NCBI RefSeq assembly: GCF_010078235.1
Contig: NZ_JAABOS010000001.1
Span: forward strand, 434,001-498,000
Direction: 5' to 3'
Origin: Cognatundibacterium crateris
GTDB taxonomy: Bacteria; Pseudomonadota; Gammaproteobacteria; Burkholderiales; Burkholderiaceae_D
DNA length: 64,000 nucleotides
Positions 31,481 to 53,983 of the stretch are shown one piece after another. Numbering within the stretch: the stretch's first letter is position 1; each line of letters opens with the position of its first letter. A program made the translations under genes and the position numbers. The notes below the pieces were generated by a model. It worked only from the letters and a program-made list of their open reading frames with translations, was not told where the DNA came from and searched no databases.

Positions 31481-31490
31481 GTCTCGCGCG

Positions 31491-32027: not shown

Positions 32028-32032
32028 CTCTT

Positions 32033-32659: not shown

Positions 32660-32737
32660 ATGTCTCTTCGCTCAACTACCAGCCTAACGAACCGTTGCAG
32701 CGGATCACCTGCGGCGCCCGCTGAACTCAAACGTTAG
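32660..32737 (+). CDS. Leader peptide of promoter cassette 3
   Basis: 25 residues starting MSLRSTTSLTNRCSG; TAG in the R' box lies seven bases before the next ATG. Confidence 0.38.
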   Translation: MSLRSTTSLTNRCSGSPAAPAELKR

Positions 32738-32739
32738 GG
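32682..32739 (+). repeat. attC of promoter cassette 3
   Basis: R'' GCCTAAC, R' GTTAGGG, 58 bp. Confidence 0.85.
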
Positions 32740-32744
32740 CCCCA

Positions 32745-33260: not shown

Positions 33261-33356
33261 GCGATACATTACGGTCAAGGCCGCTAAGGCTTTCAGCCTC
33301 CGCTGGACGCTAGGCGATAAAGCGCAGCGTAACGCCCCTTACCTAAAATGTTAGAT
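33255..33356 (+). repeat. Eroded attC of the periplasmic protein cassette
   Basis: R' GTTAGAT is visible, with inner arms CGCTGGACGCT and GCGCAGCG. The R'' box has changed to ACTAGGC and no longer fits the consensus. Confidence 0.5.
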
Positions 33357-33376
33357 TATTGATCATAAGCAACAAT

Positions 33377-34075: not shown

Positions 34076-34081
34076 CTACGA

Positions 34082-34176
34082 ATCTAACCCCAAGCTCAAC
34101 CGGACCATCCAAATGCTGCGCTTTTGGATTCCATCCGAGCTTCGCGCTCCGGCGGCCAGTTAGCTTCACGTTAGAG
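34082..34176 (+). repeat. attC of the 232-aa gene cassette
   Basis: R'' ATCTAAC and R' GTTAGAG, 95 bp, with inner arms CCAAATGCTGCGC and GCGCTTTTGG type. Confidence 0.7.
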
Positions 34177-34178
34177 GT

Positions 34179-34667
34179 ATGGCTCGGACAATGGTCGCTT
34201 ACGACATAACTCGGGATGGAATCACGAACGGCTTGTGGTTCTTTGCACTGTGGGCACTTTTTGCTACAGGAATGTTCGTCTTTTCAGCGAAAAAAGTGAA
34301 AACGGCAGCTGCTTCAGATCGTCCATATTTACTGCTCGCGATTTCTGCGCTTTTTATAACTATTTCTATCGTTGTGTTTGTGAGTGGGTTTTCTCGCCGT
34401 CAAGCTTGTCTTAAGAGCGTTCGCGCCGGCAAATTCGAAGTTACTGAAGGGGTTGTATCGCAGCTTGAGCGATTCGGGCGCTCTGCTCCATATACTTACT
34501 CCTTCGTGCTAGGTGATAAAAAGTTTGTATTTGAGCGAGCGTTGTTAGGTTCATGCGGTCTCGCCGAAAGACCGAACTTTCAACTAAGACTTACTGAGGG
34601 AAGCCGTCTAAGAATTGAGCACAATGATGATGAAATCTACCGCGTATTTCTACAGAAAGACCTGTAA
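34179..34667 (+). CDS. Cassette-encoded membrane protein (162 aa)
   Basis: Two membrane helices (about residues 17-36 and 49-70) are followed by a soluble domain with EGVVSQLERFGRSAPYTYSFVLGDKKFVFERA and LRIEHNDDEIYRVFL. This arrangement is common among small membrane proteins with a beta-rich cytosolic or periplasmic tail. The ATG comes three bases after the R' box. No family was named. Confidence 0.62.
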   Translation: MARTMVAYDITRDGITNGLWFFALWALFATGMFVFSAKKVKTAAASDRPYLLLAISALFITISIVVFVSGFSRRQACLKSVRAGKFEVTEGVVSQLERFGRSAPYTYSFVLGDKKFVFERALLGSCGLAERPNFQLRLTEGSRLRIEHNDDEIYRVFLQKDL

Positions 34668-34723
34668 CCAAATTGCTTGAGCCGACTCGCATCTGCAAGC
34701 TGCCATTGGCGATTCAGTTTGGG
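34662..34723 (+). repeat. Degenerate attC before promoter cassette 4
   Basis: R'' CTGTAAC (contains the gene's stop) and R' GTTTGGG are both off consensus, but the position and 62-bp length fit. Confidence 0.45.
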
Positions 34724-34980
34724 ACACCGTATTAATTGCGTGATTTTTCAGGCCATCAGCCAAAACAATACCCTGAAAATTTCACGCCAGGCTCACCTTT
34801 GTTTTTGGCACAAGCAAGATGATACCCTGTTTCATTATTGCCAATCTCACGACCCCGCTTTACAATCAGTCATTAACTTTTCACCAGAGTCAGCGCACGT
34901 TATGTCTCATCGCCCAACAACGAGCCTAACGAACCGTTGCAGCGGATCGCCTACGGCGCCCGCTCAACTCAACGTTAGGC
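34717..34980 (+). repeat. Promoter cassette copy 4
   Basis: 257 bp between cut sites, with a small deletion in the middle. The promoter TTGCCA 34838-34843 and TACAAT 34861-34866 have 17 bp spacing. The leader ATG is at 34902 and the attC at 34924-34980. One base is missing before the R' box, so the leader frame does not stop there. Confidence 0.82.
34924..34980 (+). repeat. attC of promoter cassette 4
   Basis: R'' GCCTAAC, R' GTTAGGC, 57 bp; one A fewer than the other copies next to R'. Confidence 0.85.
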
Positions 34981-34985
34981 CTCCA

Positions 34986-35468
34986 ATGCTACGAACAATC
35001 GTCCTATCTCTCTCCGCTCTCATGATCGCCCTGCCATCGCAAGCCGGCATCGTTGACATGTTTAACGGAGTCACCGTCGGAGACCCGCTCCCGAAGAACA
35101 ACATCGTGTTTCTTAGCGCCCCTCCGCCAACGACGAACAACGTTCAGTTAATCGATTTCTGGGCGACCACATGTGCTCCGTGCAGAACGTCCATACCCAA
35201 ACTCAACGCACTTCACCATAAGTATTCACCGAAGGGCTTGGTCGTGATCGGTGTTTCGGAGGAGCCGCGAGAAGCGGTGGTTCCGTTTCTGGAGAAAGTG
35301 CCTATGCACTATTCGTCCGCAGTTGAAGGAACAGCCAGCCTTCACAAGGCCTTGCGAATACGTGCCTTGCCCTATGCCATCTTCGTCAACCGTTCCGGAA
35401 CCATTGTCTGGCGAGGTCAACCCTCAGAAATCACTGGAGAACTCATTGAGTCCCTGCTTACCCCTTGA
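34986..35468 (+). CDS. Cassette-encoded TlpA/ResA-like thioredoxin
   Basis: A periplasmic thioredoxin-fold protein of 160 residues: signal peptide MLRTIVLSLSALMIALPSQA, active site CAPC in DFWATTCAPCRTS, then GLVVIGVSEEPREAVVPFLE and the cis-Pro loop RALPYAIFVN. TlpA/ResA proteins reduce disulfides of exported proteins or apocytochromes. The leader peptide of promoter cassette 4 is in the same frame without a stop, so a longer fusion from 34902 is possible; the start at 34986 is chosen because the signal peptide begins there. It ends just before an attC. Confidence 0.82.
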   Translation: MLRTIVLSLSALMIALPSQAGIVDMFNGVTVGDPLPKNNIVFLSAPPPTTNNVQLIDFWATTCAPCRTSIPKLNALHHKYSPKGLVVIGVSEEPREAVVPFLEKVPMHYSSAVEGTASLHKALRIRALPYAIFVNRSGTIVWRGQPSEITGELIESLLTP

Positions 35469-35471
35469 GAG

Positions 35472-35543
35472 GCCCAACCCTTCCATCGAGGGGGACGTCC
35501 AAGGGCTATCGCCCTCGGTCGCCCCTCATGTCAAACGTTAGAC
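35472..35543 (+). repeat. attC of the thioredoxin cassette
   Basis: R'' GCCCAAC and R' GTTAGAC with arms GAGGGGGACGTCC and GGTCGCCCCTC, close to the site at 31956. Confidence 0.8.
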
Positions 35544-35558
35544 ATAGTTAAATTGGCG

Positions 35559-35816
35559 ATGATTAACAAACAAAACAATCCAGTTGGTTGGGCTATGCTT
35601 ATGTATGAGTTGGAAGATGCAAAAGAACACCTAAGCAACCTTATCACTGAGATTGAAAGTGACCCTGAGTATGAGGAAGCAAATTTACGCATTGACCTTG
35701 GTCATGTTTACTCTCACTTAAACCGAGCATGGCATAGACGCGATAAAGTCGATGATGTTTCAGAACAAGAATGGATTGAAGCATCAAAGTTTCCTAGTGA
35801 TTTGGAGCCTATCTAA
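35559..35816 (+). CDS. Cassette-encoded small acidic protein (85 aa)
   Basis: A short, acidic, helical protein (YELEDAKEHLSNLITEIESD, then LRIDLGHVYSHLNRAWHRRD). The in-frame TTG two codons earlier is possible but less likely. It is the second gene behind promoter cassette 4. No family was recognised. Confidence 0.6.
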   Translation: MINKQNNPVGWAMLMYELEDAKEHLSNLITEIESDPEYEEANLRIDLGHVYSHLNRAWHRRDKVDDVSEQEWIEASKFPSDLEPI

Positions 35817-35826
35817 GTGCAATGCT

Positions 35827-35884
35827 GCCTAACCCATCCATCAAGCGGGACGCCTTGCAGCGCCCCTTTTGTCAAACGTTAGGC
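35827..35884 (+). repeat. attC of the 85-aa gene cassette
   Basis: R'' GCCTAAC, R' GTTAGGC, 58 bp, arms GCGGGACGCC and GCGCCCC. Confidence 0.82.
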
Positions 35885-36064
35885 ACATCGTCTTGATTAA
35901 GTGAGTTTTCAGGCCATCAGTCAAAACATTACCCGGAACTTTTTACACCAGGCTCACCTTAGTTTTTGACGCAAGCAAACCGGTGACACCCTGTTTCTTT
36001 ATTGCCAATCTCATCACCCCGCTTTACAATCAGTCATCATTTTTTATCAGGGTCAGCGTGCGTT

Positions 36065-36142
36065 ATGTCTCACCGCTCAACTACCAGCCTAACGAACCGT
36101 TGCAGCGGATCGTCTGCGGCGCCCGTTGAACTCAAACGTTAG
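36065..36142 (+). CDS. Leader peptide of promoter cassette 5
   Basis: 25 residues starting MSHRSTTSLTNRCSG; TAG in the R' box, 11 bases before the next ATG. Confidence 0.38.
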   Translation: MSHRSTTSLTNRCSGSSAAPVELKR

Positions 36143-36144
36143 GC
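36087..36144 (+). repeat. attC of promoter cassette 5
   Basis: R'' GCCTAAC, R' GTTAGGC, 58 bp. Confidence 0.85.
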
Positions 36145-36153
36145 AAAATACTC

Positions 36154-36693
36154 ATGAACCGCGAATTGATCACTTGGATGCAAAAAAGGGCCGCGAATGG
36201 CGCAGTTGGCGCATCAACGATTAGGGGAATGGCTCCGGCTGGAACTGCGACAATAATCAAAGACTATTTACGCAGAATGGACATCAAATTCGTCAAGGCA
36301 CGTACTGAATCTAGTTTTGAAAAAAAACTTGATGTAGTTACTGATGGGCTTCTGAAGGCTCTCCCTCATGGTTCAAAGCATTGGGGCATGGCCAGAAAGT
36401 GTGTGAATATCTTTTTACGCAACTGCCTATACAATAGATATTTATGCAGCCACTACAAATTAGAACGGCTAGAAGAGTGGCTCGAAATCCCTTTGGATAG
36501 TCATGTCGGAAAAGGCCTCATCGCACATACGGAAAAAGGTTCTTTGCCGAAGTGGGAAAAAGTGATTGCGCTGACTCGCGAGCAAAGCAACCAATATCAA
36601 CAAGCCGCTCGTAATCTGGCCAAGAAGAAACGTGTTTGCCGGGTTCATCTTGATGATTGGCTATACAGAGGCGAGCATGTCACTCAGGCCTAA
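36154..36693 (+). CDS. Cassette-encoded basic unknown protein (179 aa)
   Basis: A basic, mostly helical soluble protein (MNRELITWMQKRAANGAVGA, then GSKHWGMARKCVNIFLRNCLYNRYL and LAKKKRVCRVHLDDWLY). The charge suggests nucleic-acid contact, but no domain was recognised. It ends QA with the stop in the attC R'' box. It is the first gene behind leader 5 and has no ribosome site. Confidence 0.65.
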   Translation: MNRELITWMQKRAANGAVGASTIRGMAPAGTATIIKDYLRRMDIKFVKARTESSFEKKLDVVTDGLLKALPHGSKHWGMARKCVNIFLRNCLYNRYLCSHYKLERLEEWLEIPLDSHVGKGLIAHTEKGSLPKWEKVIALTREQSNQYQQAARNLAKKKRVCRVHLDDWLYRGEHVTQA

Positions 36694-36772
36694 CCCGGCG
36701 CTCGACCTAGCTCCCTTCGGCCGCTGGACGCTGCGCGAAAAGCCGCGCAGGCTGGTTATTTCTACGTTAGGA
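36688..36772 (+). repeat. attC of the 179-aa gene cassette
   Basis: R'' GCCTAAC, R' GTTAGGA, 85 bp, arms CTGCGCG and CGCGCAG as in the sites at 30067 and 38492. Confidence 0.8.
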
Positions 36773-36777
36773 CTCTC

Positions 36778-37254
36778 ATGCACCTACTGAGCCCGAGCGA
36801 ATACCAACCGATCGCTGCCCAAGTGGTCGAGGAGGTCGCTCGAGAAGTCACGCGGCTAATTCCAGGCTGCCGAGTCGAACACGTAGGCTCGTCTGCTATT
36901 CCGGGCGTTGTCTCGAAGGGCGACATTGATGTTTGCGTTGTCGTTCCTGCACAACAACATCAGAGTGTCGTCACAGCTCTTGAATTGGCCGGCTACGCTG
37001 TGAAGCGCGATACGCTGCGCACACCGGAGCTCTGTATGTTGCTGAGCCCTCGTGCCAACGTTGACGTTGCACTTCATGTGGTAGCGGAGGGCTCCCGCTT
37101 CGAGTTCTTCATGCGTTTCCGGGACGCGTTGCTGGCAAGTCCAACGCTCGTCAAGCAATACAACGAGGTAAAACAAAACGCCTGTGGCATGAGTCCCGAA
37201 GAGTACCGAAATGCAAAGTCTGCCTTCATCGCGTCCGTCTTGCGCACGGCCTAA
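36778..37254 (+). CDS. GrpB/UPF0157 nucleotidyltransferase-like protein
   Basis: A 158-residue member of the GrpB family (nucleotidyltransferase fold). Its hallmark VEHVGSSAIPGVVSKGDIDVCV is at residues 34-55 and contains the GSS and DID catalytic elements of the fold. EFFMRFRDALLASPTLVKQYNEVK near the C-terminus is also typical. The substrate of the family is not established; these proteins are often found in cassette arrays. It ends TA with its stop in the attC. Confidence 0.88.
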   Translation: MHLLSPSEYQPIAAQVVEEVAREVTRLIPGCRVEHVGSSAIPGVVSKGDIDVCVVVPAQQHQSVVTALELAGYAVKRDTLRTPELCMLLSPRANVDVALHVVAEGSRFEFFMRFRDALLASPTLVKQYNEVKQNACGMSPEEYRNAKSAFIASVLRTA

Positions 37255-37338
37255 CCAGTCCGTCAACGGAACGCCAAAATGCTGCGCATTTTGGTTCCCT
37301 CCTCTGCACTCCGGCGCCCGTTACGTCCAACATTAGGC
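37249..37338 (+). repeat. attC of the GrpB cassette
   Basis: R'' GCCTAAC, R' ATTAGGC, 90 bp, arms CCAAAATGCTGCGCATTTTGG forming a local hairpin. Confidence 0.78.
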
Positions 37339-37344
37339 ATTTCA

Positions 37345-37671
37345 ATGACGACTGCATTTGAATATGAATCATGGCTAATTGAAACAGGCGATATCGTTAT
37401 TAGCAAAGAAGTACAAAGCAGCGCTGCAAGCCTCACGCCTCATGAAAGGCTAATTTACTGTGTTTGGGTCGCAGACTATGGGATGCGAAATGCCGGCGAC
37501 TTAGAGACTGCAAGGGAGTTATACCCTTTTTTTCAAAGCGAGGCATGCACACTTGCAAGAAAATTATCACTCCAATACACATTGGACACTTTTTCTTTGT
37601 CAGAAAATGAATTGTGTTCGCAATATTTTGATCGTTTTGAGGGTGTCTGCAATGAACTTAAAAATGCCTAA
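37345..37671 (+). CDS. Cassette-encoded unknown acidic protein (108 aa)
   Basis: A soluble acidic helical protein (TPHERLIYCVWVADYGMRNAGDLETARELYPFF). The layout recalls small domains with a conserved YGxRNAGDL turn, but no family is named. The start at 37345 follows the R' box by six bases; an earlier ATG at 37279 is inside the attC and was rejected. It ends NA through the attC-encoded stop. Confidence 0.62.
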   Translation: MTTAFEYESWLIETGDIVISKEVQSSAASLTPHERLIYCVWVADYGMRNAGDLETARELYPFFQSEACTLARKLSLQYTLDTFSLSENELCSQYFDRFEGVCNELKNA

Positions 37672-37725
37672 CCAATCATTCAAGCGGGACTGGCTAAAGC
37701 CAGCCCCTTAATTCAAACGTTAGGC
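37666..37725 (+). repeat. attC of the 108-aa gene cassette
   Basis: R'' GCCTAAC, R' GTTAGGC, 60 bp, arms GGGACTGGCT and AGCCAGCCCC. Confidence 0.85.
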
Positions 37726-37985
37726 ACATTGTATTGATTGAGTGAGTTTTCGGACAATTAGTCAAAACACTACCCGAGATTTTTCACACCAGGCTCACCT
37801 TCGTTTTTGACACCAGCAAACCGGTGACACCCTGTTTCTTTATTGCCAATCTCATCGCCCCGCTTTACAATCAGTCATCATTTTTTATCAGGGTCAGCGT
37901 GCGTTATGTTTCACCACTCAACTACCAGCCTAACGAACCGTTGCAGCGGATCGCCTGCGCCGCACGCTGAACTCAAACGTTGGGC
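37719..37985 (+). repeat. Promoter cassette copy 6
   Basis: 260 bp. The promoter TTGCCA 37843-37848 and TACAAT 37866-37871 have 17 bp spacing. The leader starts at 37906 and the attC is 37928-37985. The R' box is GTTGGGC, so the usual leader stop is lost. It precedes genes at 37996 and 38582. Confidence 0.87.
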
Positions 37986-37995
37986 GATTCTGTAA
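37906..37995 (+). CDS. Extended leader peptide of promoter cassette 6, abutting the next gene
   Basis: TAG to TGG in the R' box lengthens the peptide to 29 residues. It now stops with TAA at 37993-37995, directly followed by the ATG of the next gene. This is the tightest leader/gene junction in the array. Confidence 0.42.
   Translation: MFHHSTTSLTNRCSGSPAPHAELKRWAIL
37928..37985 (+). repeat. attC of promoter cassette 6
   Basis: R'' GCCTAAC, R' GTTGGGC, 58 bp. Confidence 0.82.
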
Positions 37996-38484
37996 ATGGC
38001 CGTTTGGCAATTCACCACCTGCCTGGTCCCGAAAAGTTGGGCCACCGCCAACGCTGGTAACGCAAGTTTGCTTTCCAGTGATGACGGTTTTGATAGCTCG
38101 ATTGCATGGATGGATTTGACTATTGATCGCTGTAGCTTCGATGAAGCGTTCGACAAAGTTCTTGGCAGACGCAAAGCCTGGCACGAAAATCAAACTGCGT
38201 GGGGTGACGAGCAACGAACTGATATCCAGCTGTGGATCGAGCAAGGACGTATTGAAGAAATCCAGCTTCGACTGAACCTAAATGAAGACTTGGAACCATT
38301 TCTTTCCAGGTTCTGCGAAGCACTAGATGGACTCGACTGCATTGTCTTCGTACCTGAAACGAAACAACTACTTCCTCTTGCACCGGATACAATAATCCGA
38401 GCAGCTTTAGCATCAACGGCCGCATCGTTCGTCAAAGACCCACATGCCTACTTGTCAAAACTCTCAAGGGAAACGAGTTCGTGA
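37996..38484 (+). CDS. Cassette-encoded unknown protein (162 aa)
   Basis: A soluble protein (MAVWQFTTCLVPKSWATANAG, then DIQLWIEQGRIEEIQLRLNLNEDLEPFL and PHAYLSKL) resembling small immunity-type domains in overall layout; no family was named. Its ATG directly follows the leader stop TAA, with no separate ribosome site, so coupling is very likely. Confidence 0.66.
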   Translation: MAVWQFTTCLVPKSWATANAGNASLLSSDDGFDSSIAWMDLTIDRCSFDEAFDKVLGRRKAWHENQTAWGDEQRTDIQLWIEQGRIEEIQLRLNLNEDLEPFLSRFCEALDGLDCIVFVPETKQLLPLAPDTIIRAALASTAASFVKDPHAYLSKLSRETSS

Positions 38485-38491
38485 ATATATT

Positions 38492-38578
38492 GCCTAACCT
38501 GGCGTTCAACCCTGTTCGCATCACTCTCTGGACACTGTGCGATGAATCCGCGCAGCGCTGGTTAGCTCTACGTTAGCC
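38492..38578 (+). repeat. attC of the 162-aa gene cassette
   Basis: R'' GCCTAAC, R' GTTAGCC, 87 bp, similar to the site at 30067. Confidence 0.8.
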
Positions 38579-38581
38579 TCT

Positions 38582-39022
38582 ATGAGACGACTCGCAACCG
38601 ACATACTCTTCTTTACCCTAGCACTAGTTGGAACAGCTTGCCTGCGGCTTCAAATCGAACTGCGTCTTAACCAATTAGAGCTTGATTACTTGTCTGATGC
38701 CCTCTTTCCCGTCCTTGACGTCTACACAATGCTCTCTGCGCTCTCGTATGCAATAGCATTCTTTCTTGGCGGAGCAATGACTTGGATTGTTCTTCGACGG
38801 AGACCGTCAGCGGTGTGGGTGGCGGTTACCGTTGGAGTCATTTTTATCGCAGCTTGCGCTGCGGTCAGATTGCCAGAACCTCTGACTTCGCACGCTCCCG
38901 CGACTAAATTCGGCATTTGGGTTCTGTATTGGACAAATCTATGGGGGCCGCCATCATTTGCATTCGTCGGCGCAATTTCCATGCGCGGCCTGTATAAGGT
39001 TTTGCCGAAAAATGTGGGCTAA
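38582..39022 (+). CDS. Cassette-encoded membrane protein (146 aa)
   Basis: About four membrane helices (residues 7-22, 48-72, 78-98 and 107-135). The ATG follows the R' box by three bases. It is the second gene behind promoter cassette 6. No family was recognised. Confidence 0.62.
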   Translation: MRRLATDILFFTLALVGTACLRLQIELRLNQLELDYLSDALFPVLDVYTMLSALSYAIAFFLGGAMTWIVLRRRPSAVWVAVTVGVIFIAACAAVRLPEPLTSHAPATKFGIWVLYWTNLWGPPSFAFVGAISMRGLYKVLPKNVG

Positions 39023-39079
39023 CCGATCGTTCGAGCAAACTCGCGTAGGCAAGCTGCTACGAGCCTGCTCAGGTTAGGC
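39017..39079 (+). repeat. attC of the 146-aa membrane protein cassette
   Basis: R'' GGCTAAC (contains the stop), R' GTTAGGC, 63 bp. Confidence 0.8.
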
Positions 39080-39259
39080 ATACCGTATTAATCGAGTGAG
39101 TTTTCAGGCTATTAGTCAAAGCACTACCCTGAACTTTTCACGCCAGACCCATCTTCTTTTTTACACAAACAAACTACTGACGAGCTGTTTCTTTATTGCC
39201 AATTCCATTGGTCCACTTTGCAATTAGCTATCATTTTTTCATCAGGACCAGCGCACAGT

Positions 39260-39337
39260 ATGTGTCTCCACTCAACACCCAGCCTAACGAGCCACTGCAG
39301 CGGATCACCTGCGGCGACCGCTGGACTCAAACGTTAG
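39260..39337 (+). CDS. Leader peptide of promoter cassette 7
   Basis: 25 residues starting MCLHSTPSLTSHCSG; TAG in the R' box. The next gene starts 50 bases further on, too far for direct coupling. Confidence 0.32.
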   Translation: MCLHSTPSLTSHCSGSPAATAGLKR

Positions 39338-39339
39338 GA
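39282..39339 (+). repeat. attC of promoter cassette 7
   Basis: R'' GCCTAAC, R' GTTAGGA, 58 bp. Confidence 0.82.
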
Positions 39340-39387
39340 CGCTTTGACGCGGTCATAAAATTAATTTTTTGCATATATAGGTGATAA

Positions 39388-40026
39388 ATGGAAAAGCAGA
39401 ATTATTTAATTGAACAACTAATAATGCAGAATCGTTTGTTGAAGCTAATATTGACTGTGCTGGTTGTAACTCTAACAGCCATCGGCTTAATGGCAGCAAG
39501 GGCGCCAGAGGGTGTAACCGAGTCCATTCGAACCAGGGAATTATTGGTGGTCGATAGCAATAACGTAATTCGAGCCAGAGTATCGGGGGATATGCCAGAT
39601 GCGATGATGGCAAACGGCCATGTGTCTAAACGCGGGGCCAAGGCAGCTGGCTTTATGATATATGACCAAGAGGGAATAGAACGGGGTGGTTATGTGACGT
39701 TTGACCATGGCAATGCAATGCTTTCCTTGGATTCAAAATATCGCATGGTTGCCAATCTTATTGCTGGCCCTGAAGAAGATGGCGTTTCTGTCTTAAATTT
39801 GCATACAAAAAATTCCTCGTTGGAGCTGCGATCTGACCCTGAAGGTTCAAGATTGAGCGTCTCAAAGGCGAAACGGGTAACCTATCAACATCCGGAGATT
39901 GACACACTTAGTCAGGGCAAGTGCAGGAGCTACAAAGATTTGGAAAAGAAATATCCCGGCGAGGGAGTATGTCTTGATCGATTCTCTCAAGCTACGTGTG
40001 ATAGATGTTTCAAATCTGAACAGTAG
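39388..40026 (+). CDS. Cassette-encoded single-pass membrane protein (212 aa)
   Basis: One membrane helix (about residues 17-37) follows a short cytosolic lead; the rest is a beta-rich outer domain with repeating short strands (RTRELLVVDSNNVIRARVSG, GFMIYDQEGIERGGYVTFD, VLNLHTKNSSLELRS). The C-terminus has four cysteines (CRSY, CLDRF, CDRCF). The pattern of short repeated strands recalls right-handed beta-helix-like envelope proteins. No family was named. Confidence 0.65.
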   Translation: MEKQNYLIEQLIMQNRLLKLILTVLVVTLTAIGLMAARAPEGVTESIRTRELLVVDSNNVIRARVSGDMPDAMMANGHVSKRGAKAAGFMIYDQEGIERGGYVTFDHGNAMLSLDSKYRMVANLIAGPEEDGVSVLNLHTKNSSLELRSDPEGSRLSVSKAKRVTYQHPEIDTLSQGKCRSYKDLEKKYPGEGVCLDRFSQATCDRCFKSEQ

Positions 40027-40096
40027 CTCTCATACTTTTCTCATCTTTTGGCTGGTTTTCTTCGAGTTGGCGTTGTTCTTCGTGGCCTAAATTCAG

Positions 40097-40175
40097 GCCT
40101 AACCTTGCGCTGAAGTGGGATGCCCAAACAGCTGCGCTATTCGGGCTCCGGCGCTGCTTAGCTTTGGCGCTATGC
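40097..40175 (+). repeat. attC with mutated R' box
   Basis: R'' GCCTAAC is intact, but R' reads GCTATGC. Arms GGGATGCCC and GGGCTCC are visible. Confidence 0.65.
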
Positions 40176-40355
40176 ATATCGTATTGATTGAGTGAGTTTT
40201 CGGGCCATCAGTCAAAACACTACCCGGGATTTTTCACAACAGGCTCACCATTCTTTTTAACCCACGCAAACTGCTGATAGCTCGTTTCTTTATTGCCAAT
40301 TCCATCGTCCCACTTTACAATCAGTCATCATTTTTTATCAGGGTCAGCGCGCGTT

Positions 40356-40433
40356 ATGTCTCATCGCTCAACAACCAGCCTAACTAACCGTTGCAGCGGA
40401 TCGCCTGCGGCGCCCGCTGAACTCAAACGTTAA
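40356..40433 (+). CDS. Leader peptide of promoter cassette 8
   Basis: 25 residues starting MSHRSTTSLTNRCSG; the stop is TAA in an R' box altered to GTTAAGG, seven bases before the next ATG. Confidence 0.38.
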   Translation: MSHRSTTSLTNRCSGSPAAPAELKR

Positions 40434-40436
40434 GGC
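40378..40436 (+). repeat. attC of promoter cassette 8
   Basis: R'' GCCTAAC, R' GTTAAGG (one inserted A), 59 bp. Confidence 0.78.
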
Positions 40437-40440
40437 TAGC

Positions 40441-40863
40441 ATGTCAGCATCACCGCAATTCACTCGCTCAATCTGGTTCACAACCGTTTTGGCATTGCTG
40501 GTCGCCTTGGGTACGCAAGTGTTGATCGGCTCCTTGTTGCCCCTCTTTGCTTTTGAGTGGTTCTACGAAATGCCGCCCATGAACCATCCCGTGCTCATCG
40601 CCGGAGAAACATCCTTTTGGCGCGTAGACGCGCTGATTCGCGCGATGTCCTTTGCTATGGGTGCCTTCATTGCTCACCTACTTGCCAAGTCGCACTCTTG
40701 GCAATTGCTTGCCAGTCTCGTGGCAATTTCTATAGCAGACACCTTTTTTGAACAATTCCCTATGCCAGCGACTCCGTGGCAGCTTGGAATTTGGGCTTCA
40801 GCGGCGCCCGCAGGAGCACTACTAGTCGGCGTCCTTTTCCAGACTAGGAAGACCAATGCCTAA
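40441..40863 (+). CDS. Cassette-encoded membrane protein (140 aa)
   Basis: Four membrane helices (about residues 11-37, 64-82, 86-104 and 112-132). It ends NA through the attC-encoded stop. AAGG lies six bases before the ATG. No family was recognised. Confidence 0.64.
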   Translation: MSASPQFTRSIWFTTVLALLVALGTQVLIGSLLPLFAFEWFYEMPPMNHPVLIAGETSFWRVDALIRAMSFAMGAFIAHLLAKSHSWQLLASLVAISIADTFFEQFPMPATPWQLGIWASAAPAGALLVGVLFQTRKTNA

Positions 40864-40905
40864 CTGGTCGGTCAAACTGATGCAGCCTGCCTAGGTAGGT
40901 AGACA
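40858..40905 (+). repeat. Short eroded attC
   Basis: R'' GCCTAAC is intact; R' has become GTAGACA, and the site is only 48 bp. Confidence 0.55.
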
Positions 40906-41161
40906 CACCGTATTAATTGCGTGAGTTTTCAGGCCATCAGTCAAAACACTACCCTGAACTTTTCACATCAGGCTCACCTTCGTTTTTGACACAAGCAAAC
41001 TGCTGATAGCTTGTTTCTTTATTGCCAATTCCATCTCCCCGCTTTACAATCAGTCATCATTTTTATCAGGGTCAGCGCGCGTTATGGCTCACCGCTCAAC
41101 TAGCAGCCTAAGGTATCGTTGTAGCGGGTGGCCTGCGGCGCCTGATGAACTAAAACACCAG
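40899..41161 (+). repeat. Promoter cassette copy 9 (attC decaying)
   Basis: The promoter is intact: TTGCCA 41022-41027 and TACAAT 41045-41050, 17 bp. The leader ATG is at 41084. The attC (41106-41161) has lost its boxes (GCCTAAG and AACACCA), so the leader frame runs on to overlap the next gene. Confidence 0.8.
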
Positions 41162-41168
41162 ATCGCTT

Positions 41169-48766: not shown

Positions 48767-49294
48767 TTGTTTGGATTATTTAAAAAAAAGCCACTGCCAC
48801 CAGAGCCACCCACGCAGTTTCCGCCCACTCCAGATTGGCAACCTCAAATCAGTCAACCGCTGGATCGCATCGCAGAACGCATTCGCTGCTATACAAATGG
48901 GACGCGGGATTTTGCTGTTTTCACGCATGGTACAGTGGCCATACTTCCGCATGGTCTGAACGACATCAATGCAAAGGAACATGCGACCCAAGCACTGCAC
49001 CAAGTCTTACATTCACACCCGGATATGAATCCGCTGAGCATGAAAGACGGAAATATCCTGATTCAGTACAAGCACGATATTGCAAGTCTGGTGCTGTCGG
49101 ACATCGCCGATCAGAACTGGGCTGAAATCGACAAGCAATACCTGCGTGCTCTTGCCACTTCCGAAGTGTTAATCACGCCACTAGGCCATAACACGTTTGA
49201 CGATTTCGGAAAGAAAGCACTTTTTGGACGATGCTTTATGTTTATGGATGCGCAGGCACCCAAAATCGTACACATTGAGCGGCATGATGGCTAA
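48767..49294 (+). CDS. Cassette-encoded unknown protein (175 aa), TTG start
   Basis: The product starts LFGLFKKKPLPPEPPTQFPPTPDW, a proline-rich lead, followed by ISQPLDRIAERIRCYTNGTRDFAVFTHGT and a globular remainder. The TTG at 48767 has AGGAG nine bases upstream, and starting there gives a clean N-terminus; earlier in-frame codons lie in the previous attC. No family was recognised. Confidence 0.6.
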   Translation: MFGLFKKKPLPPEPPTQFPPTPDWQPQISQPLDRIAERIRCYTNGTRDFAVFTHGTVAILPHGLNDINAKEHATQALHQVLHSHPDMNPLSMKDGNILIQYKHDIASLVLSDIADQNWAEIDKQYLRALATSEVLITPLGHNTFDDFGKKALFGRCFMFMDAQAPKIVHIERHDG

Positions 49295-49345
49295 CTACTC
49301 ATTTAACAAAACGCCTGCCGGCGTCCATCAATTCGGATGTTAGAC
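49289..49345 (+). repeat. attC of the 175-aa gene cassette
   Basis: R'' GGCTAAC (contains the stop), R' GTTAGAC, 57 bp, arms GCCTGCCG and CGGCGTC. Confidence 0.78.
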
Positions 49346-49351
49346 AAGACT

Positions 49352-49750
49352 ATGTACGACGAAGATAAACACAAGCGCGCAGTCAAGGCAGAGTTGACAA
49401 AACGAGGTCTGGGCTCGCTCATGAATGACACAAAATGGCGCGAGCTGCTTGCTGAGATAAACAAGCTACCCTTTCCGCCGCCTTACCAGAGAAAGGACCT
49501 GCTGCAATCTGAGCCCGCTCCAGCCAGCTTTGATTCAGATGTTTGGTACCATGGGGATTGGGATGAAGGAACGCATCCTCTGTTTTCTATAGAATGGATA
49601 CGAATCCGTCCCAGATATCTAAAACATCTCGCGAACTTGCTACCGAAAGCTACGGTCAGTTGTGAGGCTGAACTTGAGCAAGCATTGCAGTCGATTGGGC
49701 AGGCATATGAAAAATCCGATGACTCGATCTGGATTTATGCTTACCGATAA
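49352..49750 (+). CDS. DUF6678-like protein (132 aa)
   Basis: The sequence MNDTKWRELLAEINKLPFPPPYQRKDLL, then SDVWYHGDWDEGTHPLFSIEWIRIRPRY matches my memory of DUF6678, a small soluble family often seen as single genes in accessory regions. The ATG at 49352 follows the R' box; an earlier one at 49337 is within the attC. The function is unknown. Confidence 0.72.
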   Translation: MYDEDKHKRAVKAELTKRGLGSLMNDTKWRELLAEINKLPFPPPYQRKDLLQSEPAPASFDSDVWYHGDWDEGTHPLFSIEWIRIRPRYLKHLANLLPKATVSCEAELEQALQSIGQAYEKSDDSIWIYAYR

Positions 49751-50012
49751 AATGGTGGTGGCCTGTGGCCTAAGCTCTCGGTCAATTGAGATCGCCTTAT
49801 CGCATGCAAGTTCTGCGCGATCCAGCACCCTTAGGCATTCTTTTGACTGAGTGTGTTTTCGGGCTATCAATCAAACACTACCCGGAAATTTTCACGCCAG
49901 GTTTATCTTGGCTTTTACTCCAGTCAAACTGCTCAAAGCCTGTTTCATTATTGCAAACTCCATCGCCCCGCTTTACAATCAATTATCATTTTTTATCAAA
50001 GCAGCATGCGTT

Positions 50013-50090
50013 ATGTGTCATCGTTCAACAACCTGTCTAACCAATCGTTGCAGCGGATCGCCTAGAGTTTACGCTCAACTCGAACATTAG
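50013..50090 (+). CDS. Leader peptide of promoter cassette 11
   Basis: 25 residues starting MCHRSTTCLTNRCSG; the frame is still open despite about ten substitutions relative to the other copies, and it stops TAG in the R' box. The next gene starts 52 bases on. Confidence 0.38.
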   Translation: MCHRSTTCLTNRCSGSPRVYAQLEH

Positions 50091-50092
50091 AC
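50035..50092 (+). repeat. attC of promoter cassette 11
   Basis: R'' GTCTAAC, R' ATTAGAC, 58 bp. Confidence 0.72.
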
Positions 50093-50142
50093 TGACCACC
50101 ACAAAGCATTAACAAATCAAAATTGTTTTAAATACAAAAATC

Positions 50143-51420
50143 ATGCAAGAAAAACTCACGATCAGCAATTTTTTGGTAATCAAAAATGCAGCCATTGAAG
50201 TACGACGCATAAATGTAATTATCGGTCCACAAGCCAATGGCAAAAGCCTTATTGCAAAACTACTCCACTACTTTAAATCAATTGGCGGGGAAATACTCGA
50301 AGGCATCCGAAAAGACAAGGGGAAGAGAGAGCTAGATAAATCGTTAATTGAGTTCTTTGAAAAGAGGTTTCCAAGATACACCTGGGATGGGTCTAGCTTT
50401 ACAATCAATTACGAAGTGGACGCTACTTTTATCCGAATCATTGGAAAGAAAAATTCGTCCGGAAAAACAAGTATTTCGATTCGTTACTCGGATGACATCA
50501 CAAAAATATACAATTCAAAGCGCAAGCTATTTATAAAGAAACTCGATGAAGCTCACACAACTGTACGACCAACACAGCAATTTAATCAACCCGAATCGGA
50601 AATATTTTACGAAAACGTAATCGCTCCTCTGCGCCGTGGCGAACTTTCTTATATATTTGGGTCCCCAATATTTATTCCGGCAACCCGCTCATTTTTCGCA
50701 AATCTGCAGAAAAACATTTTTACATTTCTTGCATCAAATCTTGATATCGACCCTTATCTGAAAGAATTCGGGAGCCTGTACGAAACATCAAAGCGTTGGT
50801 ATAAAGAAGGTCTTTTATTTAACAGAATCAAGCATAAAAATTTACTTGAAGAGACATACAGGGCAGTAGAAGCAATTATTGTGGGCGACTACGAGTCTCA
50901 AGATGAACAAGACTGGATAATTAGTAGGGGTCGGAAGACAAATTTAGCGAACGCATCTTCAGGTCAACAGGAAGCACTCCCAATGCTATTGACTTTGTGC
51001 GTTTGGCCTATTTTGCGGGAACATGAGGACGGCAGCATGTGCTTTATCGAAGAACCAGAAGCCCACCTCTTCCCAACCTCACAAGGCCACATCGTCTCAA
51101 TAATCTCGCAGTTTTACTCAAAGCTCGGTACAAAATTCTTTATAACGACGCATAGCCCTTACATCATCTCGGCACTCAACAATTTCATATTGGCCGCAGA
51201 CAAAGTAGCAGAAGCGGCCATGACCGAAGGTGATTTTATAAAAATAAATGGGGGTGGGCGCCCAATAAAATTTTCCGACATATCAGCGTACAGCATGGCC
51301 AATGGCGAAGCTCTGCCCATATGCGACGCAGAGTACAGAATGGTTGGTGCCACAATGCTTGATAGTATCTCAGAGCACTTTGAGTCCGTGATGAACAAAA
51401 TGCTTTCCTCGGAGGCCTGA
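50143..51420 (+). CDS. AAA-family ATPase (OLD/AAA_15-like), candidate defence ATPase
   Basis: A 425-residue ABC/SMC-like ATPase of the OLD-type AAA group. Walker A is GPQANGKS at residues 28-35; the signature ASSGQQEALPMLL, Walker B MCFIEEPEAHLFP and the switch FFITTHSPYII follow in the usual order. There is no C-terminal TOPRIM domain, so the nuclease must be elsewhere; the next gene, one base downstream, supplies a PD-(D/E)XK-like protein. ATPases of this type power several anti-phage systems. The pair sits behind promoter cassette 11. The ATPase call is secure; the defence role is inferred from the fold, pairing and array context. Confidence 0.86.
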   Translation: MQEKLTISNFLVIKNAAIEVRRINVIIGPQANGKSLIAKLLHYFKSIGGEILEGIRKDKGKRELDKSLIEFFEKRFPRYTWDGSSFTINYEVDATFIRIIGKKNSSGKTSISIRYSDDITKIYNSKRKLFIKKLDEAHTTVRPTQQFNQPESEIFYENVIAPLRRGELSYIFGSPIFIPATRSFFANLQKNIFTFLASNLDIDPYLKEFGSLYETSKRWYKEGLLFNRIKHKNLLEETYRAVEAIIVGDYESQDEQDWIISRGRKTNLANASSGQQEALPMLLTLCVWPILREHEDGSMCFIEEPEAHLFPTSQGHIVSIISQFYSKLGTKFFITTHSPYIISALNNFILAADKVAEAAMTEGDFIKINGGGRPIKFSDISAYSMANGEALPICDAEYRMVGATMLDSISEHFESVMNKMLSSEA

Positions 51421-51421
51421 A

Positions 51422-51841
51422 GTGGATTACAGCAAATGCACAACATTCACTATGGCCCCCGTAATTGTCGTTGAAGAAAATCGTAGCAAACTGATAGTAA
51501 ACAACTCTGGGAAACGACCACTGAACAAAATTAAAGTTGATGGTTGCCTTATATCACAGGAACATGAAAAGTGTGATTGGCTTGTGGCCACAACCGATGT
51601 ACCACTTCGCGCGCTTTACATCGAGCTCAAAGGTTGTGATGTTACAAAAGCTGTTTCTCAATTAAAGAATACAGTAAAGTTAACTGAGGCAACTTTCAAA
51701 GATCATGGCAAGGAATGCTATGCAATCACCACTCGCGTCCCTAAACACGGAACAGATATTCGTAAGCTTGCGATGGATTTTTACAAAGAAACCAAAGCAA
51801 CTCTTAGTGTAAAAAATGTCCAATGCAGCGTCGAGATTTGA
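51422..51841 (+). CDS. PD-(D/E)XK-like protein, probable nuclease partner of the ATPase
   Basis: The 139-residue product starts at a GTG with GGAGG six bases upstream. Asp52 in CDWLVAT and the E-x-K in YIELKGCDVTKAVSQL (Glu68, Lys70) fit the metal-binding core of PD-(D/E)XK nucleases, with the following helix carrying conserved Lys and Gln. The gene lies one base after the ATPase, with its ribosome site inside the ATPase end, so both are made together. No known two-gene system was recognised exactly. Nuclease activity is inferred from three residues only. Confidence 0.65.
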   Translation: MDYSKCTTFTMAPVIVVEENRSKLIVNNSGKRPLNKIKVDGCLISQEHEKCDWLVATTDVPLRALYIELKGCDVTKAVSQLKNTVKLTEATFKDHGKECYAITTRVPKHGTDIRKLAMDFYKETKATLSVKNVQCSVEI

Positions 51842-51847
51842 GTACAT

Positions 51848-51965
51848 TCCGCAGCGCCTAAAATGACATGACGAGATACTCATATAAGACACCAGCGCAG
51901 GCCATACCTTGAGCATTCTCATGGCCTGTGCTGGAATCCTATGCACATTAGATTGTCCGGCACTG
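51848..51965 (+). repeat. Hairpin-rich attC-like site after the ATPase/nuclease cassette
   Basis: An R''-like GCCTAAA and an R'-like ATTAGAT flank a strong stem CCAGCGCAGGCCAT / ATGGCCTGTGCTGG (51892-51934, one G-T pair). It may act as attC, terminator or both. Confidence 0.45.
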
Positions 51966-52019
51966 CATTCCTTTGACATTTGGAATGGTAAATACATCAT
52001 CCCCGTCAGTCACTCCCCC

Positions 52020-52262
52020 TCACGAAAAACTCAAATCTAGTCCTATCATCCTGCAAAAAACAAAGGTCGAGAACCCCAGCGCCAGCAGGCTTAGCACGAA
52101 GATGACGGTGACCTTGCGGCCCGCGCGCAGTATGGCGCGCTTCTCATCTGCCCACTCCTTTTCCTTTGTACCTTGATCGTAATGCCACTTGATGGCGAAG
52201 TACATGCCCGTGCCGAGCACGAGCAGTTTGAACGTCACGAGGACGACAGGGGTCCATTCCAT
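52020..52262 (-). CDS. Small membrane protein on the opposite strand (80 aa)
   Basis: MEWTPVVLVTFKLLVLGTGMYFAIKWHYDQG and a second helix near residues 52-70 give two membrane segments with a charged loop between. It is the only likely minus-strand gene in the array. It resembles short conserved membrane proteins, but none was named. Confidence 0.6.
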   Translation of the reverse strand: MEWTPVVLVTFKLLVLGTGMYFAIKWHYDQGTKEKEWADEKRAILRAGRKVTVIFVLSLLALGFSTFVFCRMIGLDLSFS

Positions 52263-52809
52263 TTCCGTATTTCCAGACTAAGTTGACACTAAAATCATTG
52301 GGCGCAAGCGTTTCAAACGCTGCATCAGCAGTTGTATTTGCTGTTCATTCGATTTGCTCAGGCCTGCTGCCTGAATCTGCATTCACTCAGCCGTATAAAT
52401 TTGCATGGCATCCAGCGCAGATAAGAGAAAAAACGGTCACGACAGCCATACCGGTATAGAGTTGCTGCGCGCCCTAAGGCATACTACTTTAAAGCAATAT
52501 CCATACATAGTGACAAAATGTCCCAGTCGAAATACATAGCATCATAGACCGCGGCTGCTTACAGGCGAACTGCAGCACTTCTCTCACCTGTTCGCCCAAC
52601 GGCCTGAATCTCTCAATGCTGCGGTGGTTTAACTGGGTTGGAGTATCTGTATTTCTCGTGAGCGCTCTCCATCCAGTAGCGGGCTAAGTCAGTTGATTCG
52701 CTGTGTTTTTTATCGCTGCAGCTTCCAGCCCCCCCCACCATCCTCACTATCACTAAACTCAGCAGTGATTTCCAAGCTGATTTCACGGCATTTTCCACCT
52801 CAAGCAATC
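52263..52809. other. Gene-poor stretch in the distal array
   Basis: These 547 bp hold no convincing gene or attC pair. The short frames on the minus strand are probably chance. Confidence 0.3.
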
Positions 52810-52900
52810 TACCGGAACACCGTTTCATGATTGCCATTTCCTCTACCCAGCTTTACAATCTGCCATCATTTTTGTAGAGCTGGCTTGTGCCGGGAATCTT
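52810..52900 (+). repeat. Highly diverged promoter cassette copy 12 (core only)
   Basis: TTGCCA 52831-52836 and TACAAT 52854-52859 are intact with 17 bp between; GTTTCATGA upstream and GCCATCATTTTT downstream align to the family. Leader, attC and ends are not recognisable. It lies 120 bp before the gene at 52983. Confidence 0.58.
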
Positions 52901-52982
52901 CCTCGAACAAAGCGCCTGATGCATCATCACTGTTGCTGCGCTTAGCCTGCTTCATTTACTCAATACCTATAAGGACAACAAA

Positions 52983-53303
52983 ATGAATGCCCTTAATACA
53001 AACCGAAGAACTGACTTCATCATCGGTGTTTCACAACTTAGTTTCGCAGTCTTGATCGGCATTCTCGCGCTGGGTGTGTCTGTCACTGCGCTGATGCATG
53101 CCGTTGATCCCGAACACTTTGGTCTGTGGGTATCCCAAACAATGTTTGTGTTTGGCGGCTTGGAAGACCCGACACTGGCACGTGAAGTACTCGGCGACAA
53201 AATCTATTTATATGCTGCTGCAGGGTCACTGATCGCTATCCCTACTATCTGGGAACTGAGTCAGGCGGCGCTAAGGCGCTTTAAACAAACAGCCGGTGTT
53301 TGA
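52983..53303 (+). CDS. Membrane protein (106 aa)
   Basis: Two membrane helices (about residues 14-40 and 72-92) around a short soluble segment (DPEHFGLWVSQTMFVFGGLEDP). AAGGA lies seven bases before the ATG. No family was recognised. Confidence 0.58.
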   Translation: MNALNTNRRTDFIIGVSQLSFAVLIGILALGVSVTALMHAVDPEHFGLWVSQTMFVFGGLEDPTLAREVLGDKIYLYAAAGSLIAIPTIWELSQAALRRFKQTAGV

Positions 53304-53351
53304 CCGGAATGCGCTATTGGTCGCGTTTTATACTGGCTCATCTTCTATGAC

Positions 53352-53397
53352 GGCTAACGCTTCATTCAACGGCACTCGCTGAATTCAAACCTTAGGT
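53352..53397 (+). repeat. Short attC in the distal array
   Basis: R'' GGCTAAC and R' CTTAGGT, 46 bp; shorter than usual. Confidence 0.5.
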
Positions 53398-53407
53398 TGC
53401 ACACACC

Positions 53408-53983
53408 ATGCTCTTTCGTCGCATTCTAATTACCATCGGTGCGCTTTCTCTAGTCTTGTTGGTGGGAGCATGGCTACTGTTGAAGTATGCACCCGAGGTC
53501 ACGCTCAAGCTAACGCAGGCTCAGTTACAGGCGCAAATTGAACCTCACTTCCCTGCTAAGAAATGTGTACTGGGTGCGTGTATTGAACTTCTGGCGCCGC
53601 GCCTGGCGCTGACCAACGGCTCCGACCGCATAGTCATAGAGAGCGCCTTTGTAGCTACGCTCGGCAATCGGGCCATGCCAGGTTCTGCTCAGCTCAGCGG
53701 CCGACCGCACTACGAACAAGCGTCAGGTAACTTTTACCTGGCAGACGTTCAGGTCAGCCATTTCCAGATGACCGGCGCCGCACCGGACCTCAATGAAGCA
53801 ATCAAGCTTCGTGGCCCCGGCATCATGGCTGCCATCATGAATCGCTTCCCTATCTACTCAGTCCAGTCTCATCAGGAATATGGCCGCATAGCTAAGCTCG
53901 CGCTCAAATCAGCAAACATTGTGGATGGACAGTTGCAGTTAGTCTTCGTCAACCCACTCCTGATTTTTAACAAAAGCAAATAA
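53408..53983 (+). CDS. DUF1439/YceB-like membrane-anchored protein
   Basis: A 191-residue protein with an N-terminal membrane anchor (RILITIGALSLVLLVGAWLLL). The body LTQAQLQAQIEPHFPAKKC, IELLAPRLALTNGSDRIVIESA and SAQLSGRPHYEQASGNFYLADVQV is typical of the DUF1439 (YceB) beta-sheet fold, a periplasmic lipid-binding-like domain. YceB proteins are usually lipoproteins; here the anchor is a helix without a lipobox. The ligand is unknown. Confidence 0.72.
   Translation: MLFRRILITIGALSLVLLVGAWLLLKYAPEVTLKLTQAQLQAQIEPHFPAKKCVLGACIELLAPRLALTNGSDRIVIESAFVATLGNRAMPGSAQLSGRPHYEQASGNFYLADVQVSHFQMTGAAPDLNEAIKLRGPGIMAAIMNRFPIYSVQSHQEYGRIAKLALKSANIVDGQLQLVFVNPLLIFNKSK

What the first reader, a model, noticed from the sequence alone, without database searches (positions are those of the whole stretch)
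50143..51841. AAA ATPase plus PD-(D/E)XK-like protein: candidate anti-phage cassette
An OLD-type ATPase without a nuclease domain is followed after one base by a 139-residue protein with Asp52, Glu68 and Lys70 spaced like a nuclease core. They share a cassette behind promoter copy 11. ATPase plus nuclease pairs are a recurring defence layout, and integron cassettes elsewhere are known to carry defence genes. I could not match the pair to a named system.
Basis: partly seen in the sequence, partly recalled or inferred. Interest (0 to 1): 0.75.

Follow-up and report, generated by a model that had tools for sequence, protein, structure and literature searches.

The report
WonAB-like anti-phage ATPase–nuclease gene pair
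These two adjoining genes very probably form an anti-virus defence system, a molecular sensor paired with a small nucleic-acid-cutting enzyme, of a kind first shown to work in cholera bacteria in 2025; finding it beside an integron gene array is a useful extension, not a new kind of system.

Summary
ORF A (50143-51420, 425 aa) is an ABC-type ATPase with no nuclease domain detected. ORF B (51422-51841, 139 aa, GTG start) is modelled confidently, with a fold best read as PD-(D/E)XK. D52, E68 and K70 are kept in 88, 89 and 89 of 89 aligned sequences. The genes travel together: in the 80 genome loci fetched (of 144 found), B has A or part of it directly upstream in 79, and in the last B lies at a contig end. 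It also fits the validated WonAB system of Vibrio cholerae, a sensor ATPase plus nuclease that aborts phage infection by stopping translation. All five residues shown to be essential there have counterparts here. WonAB sequences were not held, so direct homology was not measured. [quoted passage not shown] No convincing attC follows B closely, so 'its own cassette' is only half supported. New member of a known kind.

The parts
50143..51420 (+). ORF A, OLD/Rad50-type ABC ATPase (sensor), 425 aa, no nuclease domain detected
   Evidence: model pLDDT 88.0 / pTM 0.89; VIA-align Z 17.9 retron PtuA, 16.3 AriA, 16.0 Rad50
50224..50247 (+). Walker A, GPQANGKS (G28-S35); K34 corresponds in number to WonA K34
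   Evidence: K34 in 77 of 78 A sequences, 1 gap; WonA K34A abolishes defence (PMC12137116)
50686..50688 (+). Arg182 of A (counterpart of WonA R182)
   Evidence: 78 of 78; WonA R182A abolishes defence
51049..51054 (+). Walker B acidic pair E303/E304 (E304 taken as counterpart of WonA E300)
   Evidence: 78 of 78 each; E-to-H spacing 33 as in the published WonA numbering
51151..51153 (+). H337 switch histidine of A (counterpart of WonA H333)
   Evidence: 78 of 78
51411..51415 (+). GGAGG ribosome-binding site, 6 nt before the GTG start of B, inside the end of A
   Evidence: read from the sequence
51422..51841 (+). ORF B, small PD-(D/E)XK-fold protein (putative nuclease effector), 139 aa
   Evidence: model pLDDT 89.8 / pTM 0.86; the top VIA-align rows are largely enzymes that I recall as PD-(D/E)XK, Z up to 6.8
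51575..51577 (+). Asp52 codon of B (active-site Asp, next to strand 53-57)
   Evidence: 88 of 89
51623..51631 (+). E68-L69-K70 of B (E-x-K; K70 counterpart of WonB K71)
   Evidence: 89 of 89 each (residues 66-74 were fixed by the search pattern); WonB K71A inactive
51659..51661 (+). Gln80 of B, in the helix after the E-x-K strand
   Evidence: 89 of 89, outside the search patterns
50035..50092 (+). attC-like site in front of A
   Evidence: 63.2 bits, E 7.4e-15, with a model of the window's own attC-like sites, of which it is one
49843..50034 (+). 11th copy of the repeated promoter-like unit; TTGCAA-17-TACAAT at 49951-49979
   Evidence: blastn and alignment of copies; promoter scan (over the whole region it found 2 sites against a mean of 5.0 in shuffles, so the scan alone is no evidence)

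Best explanation
[quoted passage not shown] Shown here: an ABC-type ATPase and a small protein modelled as a PD-(D/E)XK fold with conserved active-site residues, encoded together as A then B wherever B was found with enough upstream DNA, and with correlated divergence. Inferred from WonAB: A dimerises around ATP at its Walker A/B, signature and H motifs, holds and licenses B through its C-terminal extension, and senses an event of phage infection. B is then activated and cuts a nucleic acid, most likely tRNA or rRNA, so that translation stops and the infected cell stalls or dies before new phages form. The ribosome site of B inside the end of A and the 1-base gap may couple translation and so limit excess B. 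Here the pair would be transcribed from the repeated promoter-like unit in front of the attC at 50035-50092.
For: PADLOC: PDC-M29A 2e-21 for A (second to an AriA model at 7e-24) and PDC-M29B, the only hit, 2.3e-6 for B; of 25 aligned B sequences 21 hit PDLC04563 and 4 hit PDLC04564 at E 0.01, rows may overlap. Co-occurrence: of 80 genome-contig loci, 77 have A directly upstream of B on the same strand by start-to-stop ORFs, two more (L025, L062) by stop-to-stop frames, and in L040 B lies at the contig end. Pairwise distances of A and B correlate (Spearman 0.64; 0 of 2000 permutations as high; 70 of 78 pairs kept after thinning). A's K34, R182, E304, H337 and B's K70 match WonA K34, R182, E300, H333 and WonB K71, each essential for defence; spacings 148/122/33 against 148/118/33 from the published numbers. 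B is modelled with PD-(D/E)XK topology. Some relatives appear to sit as cargo among phage genes (my reading of the ORFs, no profile search run on them). GC of 0.39 and 0.44 in the two kilobases holding the pair against 0.47-0.52 in the three before and after, and no B match in any of the 12 other family members listed in the order search, point to horizontal gain.
Against: The WonA and WonB sequences were not held, so the link is by layout, residue numbers and spacing, not by alignment. The PDC-M29B match is modest: in a whole-genome search the same model did not ring in the window's own genome at E 0.001, and L006 B and L007 B hit no PADLOC family. B's fold matches are modest too (Foldseek best E 0.034, none at 0.001; best Z 6.8, under the tool's caution line of 8; acetyl-CoA carboxylase domains also appear). 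Flanking genes in 19 relatives show no clear defence-island pattern: of 129 flank ORFs at E 1e-15, 82 PADLOC families matched and the 25 shown matched one ORF each, chiefly PDC-S05 and GajB models (no control run). No convincing attC close behind B. Translation arrest is inferred from one characterised relative.
Confidence: 0.75

Rival explanations
1. Same sensor-effector pair, but B cuts DNA (phage or host) rather than RNA, so that defence is by DNA degradation or nicking, as in Septu, Gabija or restriction-like systems.
For: The nearest solved folds to B are mostly DNA enzymes or mixed nucleases (names: Can2, Card1, FokI, EndoMS, EcoT38I, BamHI; their substrates recalled). The nearest folds to A include PtuA, AriA and Rad50.
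Against: WonB, the characterised counterpart, stops translation without genomic DNA degradation (PMC12137116, passages). PD-(D/E)XK folds also include RNases (recalled).
Confidence: 0.2
2. A toxin-antitoxin or plasmid/prophage maintenance pair, with A as antitoxin of nuclease B, not primarily anti-phage.
For: Compact two-gene unit; one relative is on a mobilizable plasmid, others on contigs of the viral collection; this one is beside an attC array, where toxin-antitoxin pairs are common (recalled).
Against: In WonAB, WonB overproduction was not toxic without WonA, which the authors took to rule out simple sequestration. The conserved ATPase motifs in A are not typical of an antitoxin (recalled).
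Confidence: 0.07
3. A decayed passenger: once a defence pair, now not functional or not expressed at this site.
For: No strong ribosome site seen before A; in 4 of 80 genome loci A is in pieces or cut short away from contig ends (L018, L019, L037, L031); the array has no integrase over the curated cut-off in this genome.
Against: Both reading frames are full length with the conserved residues intact; a promoter-like unit lies before A and a good ribosome site before B.
Confidence: 0.1

Closest known systems
WonAB (V. cholerae WASA-1 prophage; Adams et al. 2025, PMC12137116, passages seen)
   Same: Two-gene operon; OLD-type ABC ATPase followed by a small PD-(D/E)XK protein; counterparts of all five residues shown to be essential (K34, R182, E300, H333; K71); near-identical motif spacing.
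   Different: Direct sequence identity unknown (sequences not held). Here the pair lies beside a chromosomal attC array, not in a WASA-1 prophage; phage range and target untested.
PADLOC candidate PDC-M29 (PDC-M29A/B)
   Same: Both proteins hit the two models: A 2e-21, B 2.3e-6 and its only hit.
   Different: As I recall, PDC names mark predicted, untested candidates. The window pair scores far below the faecal relative L003 (A 1.8e-46, B 3.3e-10), so it is a diverged member.
OLD-ABC ATPase + novel REase operons (Krishnan et al. 2020; known to me only through PMC12137116 and PMC12409358)
   Same: The wider group that, according to PMC12137116, encompasses all WonAB homologues detected there.
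   Different: The 2020 paper was not held, so its own definition could not be checked.
PD-T4-4 (E. coli; Vassallo et al. 2022, PMC9519451)
   Same: Found by functional selection against phage (title and passage); listed with PF13175 and a PD(D/E)XK nuclease in the table of PMC10952713; A hits PD-T4-4_A 1.9e-15.
   Different: B hits no PD-T4-4 model, though I did not verify that the library holds one for the nuclease; PMC12137116 describes different inserts, C-terminal extensions and in some cases a different nuclease.
Septu / retron PtuAB and PARIS AriAB
   Same: Similar ATPase fold and the sensor ATPase + nuclease plan (recalled).
   Different: Their effectors are HNH (PtuB) and TOPRIM-type (AriB) proteins; B has no such profile hit and is modelled as PD-(D/E)XK.

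Membership tests
[quoted passage not shown]
   1-bp gap in the window; A or part of it directly upstream of B in 79 of 80 genome loci, the last having B at the contig end, and in 15 of 15 further loci
[quoted passage not shown]
   K34, R182, E304, H337 present, conserved 77-78 of 78; spacing 148/122/33 against 148/118/33. Correspondence by number and motif, not by aligning to WonA
[quoted passage not shown]
   E68-x-K70 in 89 of 89, D52 in 88 of 89; confident model with the expected order of elements; fold comparison modest, best Z 6.8. Nuclease activity itself untested
[quoted passage not shown]
   425 aa; no TOPRIM family among the four Pfam hits up to E 10; the chain ends in a helix, 88 residues after the H motif
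[quoted passage not shown]
[quoted passage not shown] both genes needed | not testable with these tools
   needs bench work
PADLOC PDC-M29 | Hits to both PDC-M29A and PDC-M29B in neighbouring genes | tested here: met
   2e-21 and 2.3e-6 by hmmscan; only an AriA model scores higher for A. Against: the PDC-M29B model did not reach E 0.001 in the own genome in the whole-genome search
PARIS | AriB TOPRIM-type (DUF4435) effector next to AriA | tested here: not met
   B's only hits up to E 10 are a sub-threshold F-93_WHD in Pfam and PDC-M29B in PADLOC. The AriA hit of A seems to be the generic AAA_15 profile (length 373 against 374; inference)
Septu | HNH nuclease PtuB | tested here: not met
   no HNH family for B in Pfam up to E 10; predicted topology is PD-(D/E)XK
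Gabija / OLD class 1 | TOPRIM nuclease fused to the ATPase (plus UvrD-type GajB in Gabija) | tested here: not met
   A is 425 aa with no TOPRIM hit
PD-T4-4 | PD-T4-4_A and its nuclease partner both present | tested here: inconclusive
   A 1.9e-15 to PD-T4-4_A; B hits no PD-T4-4 model at E up to 10, but it was not verified that the library holds a model of the partner
Integron gene cassette | attC on both sides of the unit | tested here: inconclusive
   attC in front at 50035-50092 (E 7.4e-15, one of the model's own seeds); behind B only a weak candidate at 53352 (E 0.01), beyond a stretch conserved in two of three congeners

The most novel reading that the evidence does not exclude
The pair is a diverged subtype of the WonAB kind that was captured by an attC array and is expressed from a repeated, itself mobile, promoter unit, so that an integron-like array both stores an abortive-infection system and supplies its promoter; its nuclease may recognise a different RNA or DNA target from WonB.
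Probability: 0.3. Interest if true: 0.45.

Novelty: new member of a known kind. Interest (0 to 1): 0.32.

Why it matters
It links three things that were separate in what I could read: a PADLOC candidate that no paper of the searched library names (PDC-M29), the validated WonAB system, and attC arrays as stores of defence genes. Only one Pfam family matches any of 25 B relatives at E 0.01, and that in one member, and no PDB chain matches their profile by sequence at E 1. Yet the family is spread across many phyla, so a small set of bench tests on one environmental pair would inform a whole family.

Tried and rejected
Considered and rejected: PARIS, Septu and Gabija/OLD membership; PD-T4-4 left inconclusive (see Membership tests). 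L002 and L005, weak whole-genome hits, lie in what reads as an M48-type peptidase frame and in a stretch with a stop inside and were dropped. L016 (G217) is a cousin pair whose B hits PDC-M47B; it was in the seed profiles but left out of the 89- and 78-sequence counts. L014 was not aligned, as its pair is almost the same as that of L013; L012 and L013, about 99% alike, were both counted. The one B without D52 was not looked at. Of the 144 relatives found in genome contigs only the best 80 were kept by the tool. Single-protein scans of viral contigs with window B, window A and L006 B found nothing. Plasmid searches with window B at E 0.01 and window A at E 1e-10 found nothing. In the class, the four-row B profile A4 rang in 2 of 369 genomes, one being the own genome and the other L016. 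No Rfam family in 49000-53500. Defence islands: 129 flank ORFs of 19 of the 50 loci with long flanks were scanned (only the first 25 families of each table shown; no control set). 'PDC-M29' is in no paper of the searched library; WonAB is in two. In the fold second look, families not listed are not thereby excluded. The 3D clustering of D52/E68/K70 could not be measured, as no model coordinates were in the script box.

Papers: PMC12137116 - passages found by search terms, including abstract and legends; PMC12409358 - two passages; PMC10952713 - five passages including its table; PMC9519451 - two passages, one of them in the reference list. Krishnan 2020, Darracq 2024 and the source of PADLOC's PDC names were not read (seen as citations or recalled). 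All other papers were seen in search listings only.

Full report
What is there. On the + strand, ORF A (50143-51420, 425 aa, ATG) is followed after one base by ORF B (51422-51841, 139 aa, GTG). B has a GGAGG ribosome site six bases before its GTG, inside the end of A. The pair occurs once in the 4.31-Mb assembly. GC is 0.39 and 0.44 in the two kilobases that hold it, against 0.47-0.52 in the three before and after.

A. Pfam gives AAA_15 (7.9e-22) and AAA_21 (2.6e-12) and no nuclease domain. A model built on 30 sequences (pLDDT 88.0, pTM 0.89) resembles retron PtuA (Z 17.9, 319 residues aligned, rmsd 4.7), AriA of PARIS (Z 16.3) and Rad50 (Z 16.0). In 78 aligned sequences K34 is kept in 77 (one gap), and R182, E303, E304, H337 and D407 in all 78.

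B. No Pfam or NCBIfam hit above a cut-off and no PDB sequence match, alone at E 10 or as a profile at E 1. The only PADLOC hit is PDC-M29B, 2.3e-6. A model on 25 sequences is confident (pLDDT 89.8, pTM 0.86): strand 53-57 begins just after D52, strand 63-69 ends at E68-x-K70, and Q80 sits in the next helix (74-87), the order of a PD-(D/E)XK core. Foldseek has no match at E 0.001 or better (best 0.034, Can2). The second aligner puts Can2, VC1899, FokI, Card1, EndoMS, EcoT38I and BamHI among the best (Z 5.5-6.8), together with acetyl-CoA carboxylase rows that I take as unrelated. These Z values are below the tool's caution line of 8, so the fold assignment rests on the combination of model, topology and conservation. 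That most of these enzymes are PD-(D/E)XK nucleases is recalled. In 89 sequences D52 is kept in 88, E68, K70 and Q80 in 89, D40 and C51 in 88. The genome scan fixed residues 66-74 and the viral scan used that stretch or residues 34-42; C51, D52 and Q80 were fixed by neither.

A and B belong together. A genome-contig scan found 144 relatives of B and returned the best 80, from Pseudomonadota, Cyanobacteria, Bacteroidota, Bacillota, Verrucomicrobiota, Acidobacteriota, Planctomycetota and others (phyla inferred from the record titles). By start-to-stop ORFs my B profile found B in 79 of 80, and 77 of these have A directly upstream on the same strand (gap -152 to +11 bases, many -4 or -1; the extremes depend on my choice of the earliest start codon). 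By stop-to-stop frames L025 also has B with an A frame before it, L062 has the last codons of A at the contig end, and L040 has B at the contig end without room for A. So A or part of it precedes B in 79 of 80. Eight of the 77 A frames are shorter than 330 aa: L028, L044, L045 and L066 are cut by contig ends, in L018, L019 and L037 A lies in two or three frames, and in L031 only about 120 codons remain. Distances in A and B correlate (Spearman 0.64; best of 2000 permutations 0.12; 70 of 78 pairs after thinning); this does not correct for a shared species tree. The closest relatives with both genes are Oceanospirillum beijerinckii (A 55%, B 50%), Pseudomonas grimontii (54%, 53%) and Cyanobium sp. 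(52%, 45%), a pattern that suggests lateral spread. The B profile rings in 8 of 398 genomes of the phylum and 9 of 399 of the order, the window genome included, and in none of the 12 other family members listed in the order search, three of them of the same genus.

What it is. PADLOC names the pair PDC-M29: A 2e-21, second to an AriA model that seems to be the generic AAA_15 profile, and B 2.3e-6. L003 from human faeces scores 1.8e-46 and 3.3e-10. The match is modest for the window pair: the PDC-M29B model did not ring in the own genome at E 0.001 in the whole-genome search, and the B of L006 and of L007 hits no PADLOC family. The validated system with the same anatomy is WonAB of V. cholerae (PMC12137116; passages): an OLD-type ABC ATPase needing K34, R182, E300 and H333, and a PD-(D/E)XK nuclease needing K71. 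Both genes are required. Defence is lysis-independent abortive infection; WonB overproduction stops translation without genomic DNA degradation, so the authors suggest rRNA or tRNA as target. WonB overproduction is not toxic without WonA. The authors place WonAB in a wider 'OLD-ABC ATPase + novel REase' group present in 0.96% of the bacterial genomes they examined and note its likeness to PD-T4-4. The window pair has counterparts at all five positions, with spacings 148/122/33 against 148/118/33. Direct alignment to WonAB was not done. I therefore claim that it works like WonAB (likely) and is a member of the same wider family (probable, untested by direct homology).

How it most likely works. 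Shown: two-gene unit, motif conservation, predicted folds, correlated divergence. Inferred from WonAB: A is an ATP-driven dimeric sensor that binds B by its C-terminal extension; infection triggers B; B cuts RNA; translation and phage assembly stop. The DNA-cutting alternative is kept as the main rival because B's nearest folds are mostly DNA or mixed nucleases (substrates recalled).

Setting. Seventeen attC-like sites (E below 0.001) lie between 29.5 and 41.2 kb, and a strong one at 50035-50092 directly before A (ten of the seventeen and the one before A are the model's own seeds). The repeated ~200-base unit in front of A is the eleventh of twelve matches; its most conserved part contains TTGC(A/C)A-17-TACAAT. 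No integron integrase reaches the curated cut-off in this 42-contig assembly or in three congeners. To the right of B there is no convincing attC for 1.5 kb, and a stretch at about 52031-52291, over the next ORF (52020-52262, - strand), is conserved at 73-75% in two of three congeners, so the pair appears to form the right edge of the array. That attC arrays can store defence genes is suggested by work cited in PMC12137116 (Darracq et al., seen only as a reference).

Evidence against and limits. Flank genes of 19 relatives show no clear defence-island pattern (129 ORFs; no control). Phage protection, target and trigger are untested for this pair. Verdict: real, most likely functional, a new member of a recently described kind.

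Noticed in passing
window 29401-41163: Gene cassettes alternate with a repeated ~200-base promoter-like unit ending in its own attC; in at least four places (left attC at 31092-31220, 32415-32480, 35827-35884, 37666-37725) the unit is bounded by attC-like sites on both sides, as if a promoter cassette had been inserted again and again.
   Followed up: partly
G1044:C1:1252455-1252670 and 1250942-1251001 (same genus; attC in L121): A fragment resembling the start of an integron integrase, with a stop inside, lies about 1.5 kb from an attC-like site in a congener, while none of the four genomes examined has an integrase over the curated cut-off: the genus may carry integrons that lost their integrase.
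   Followed up: partly
L006 (MT836320.1) 980-2605 and 2682-4004: Upstream of a distant A-B pair lie a SIR2-like ORF and another ORF that looks like a sporadically distributed defence-type protein (my reading of the translations, no profile search run).
   Followed up: no
L016 (G217:C74): A cousin ATPase + small CDYL...VEIKG protein pair whose small protein hits PDC-M47B: ATPase + small nuclease-like pairs may form several related PADLOC candidate families.
   Followed up: no
L114 (G903:C6) 2010-3308: A second A-like frame (E 1.9e-25) lies just downstream of the A-B pair on the same strand.
   Followed up: no
PADLOC PDLC02979 / PDLC02980 (model-library remark): Two 'AriA' models have nearly the same lengths as Pfam AAA_15 and AAA_21 (373/374 and 304/304) and score high on A proteins of this non-PARIS pair; a PARIS call based on them alone could mislead.
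   Followed up: no
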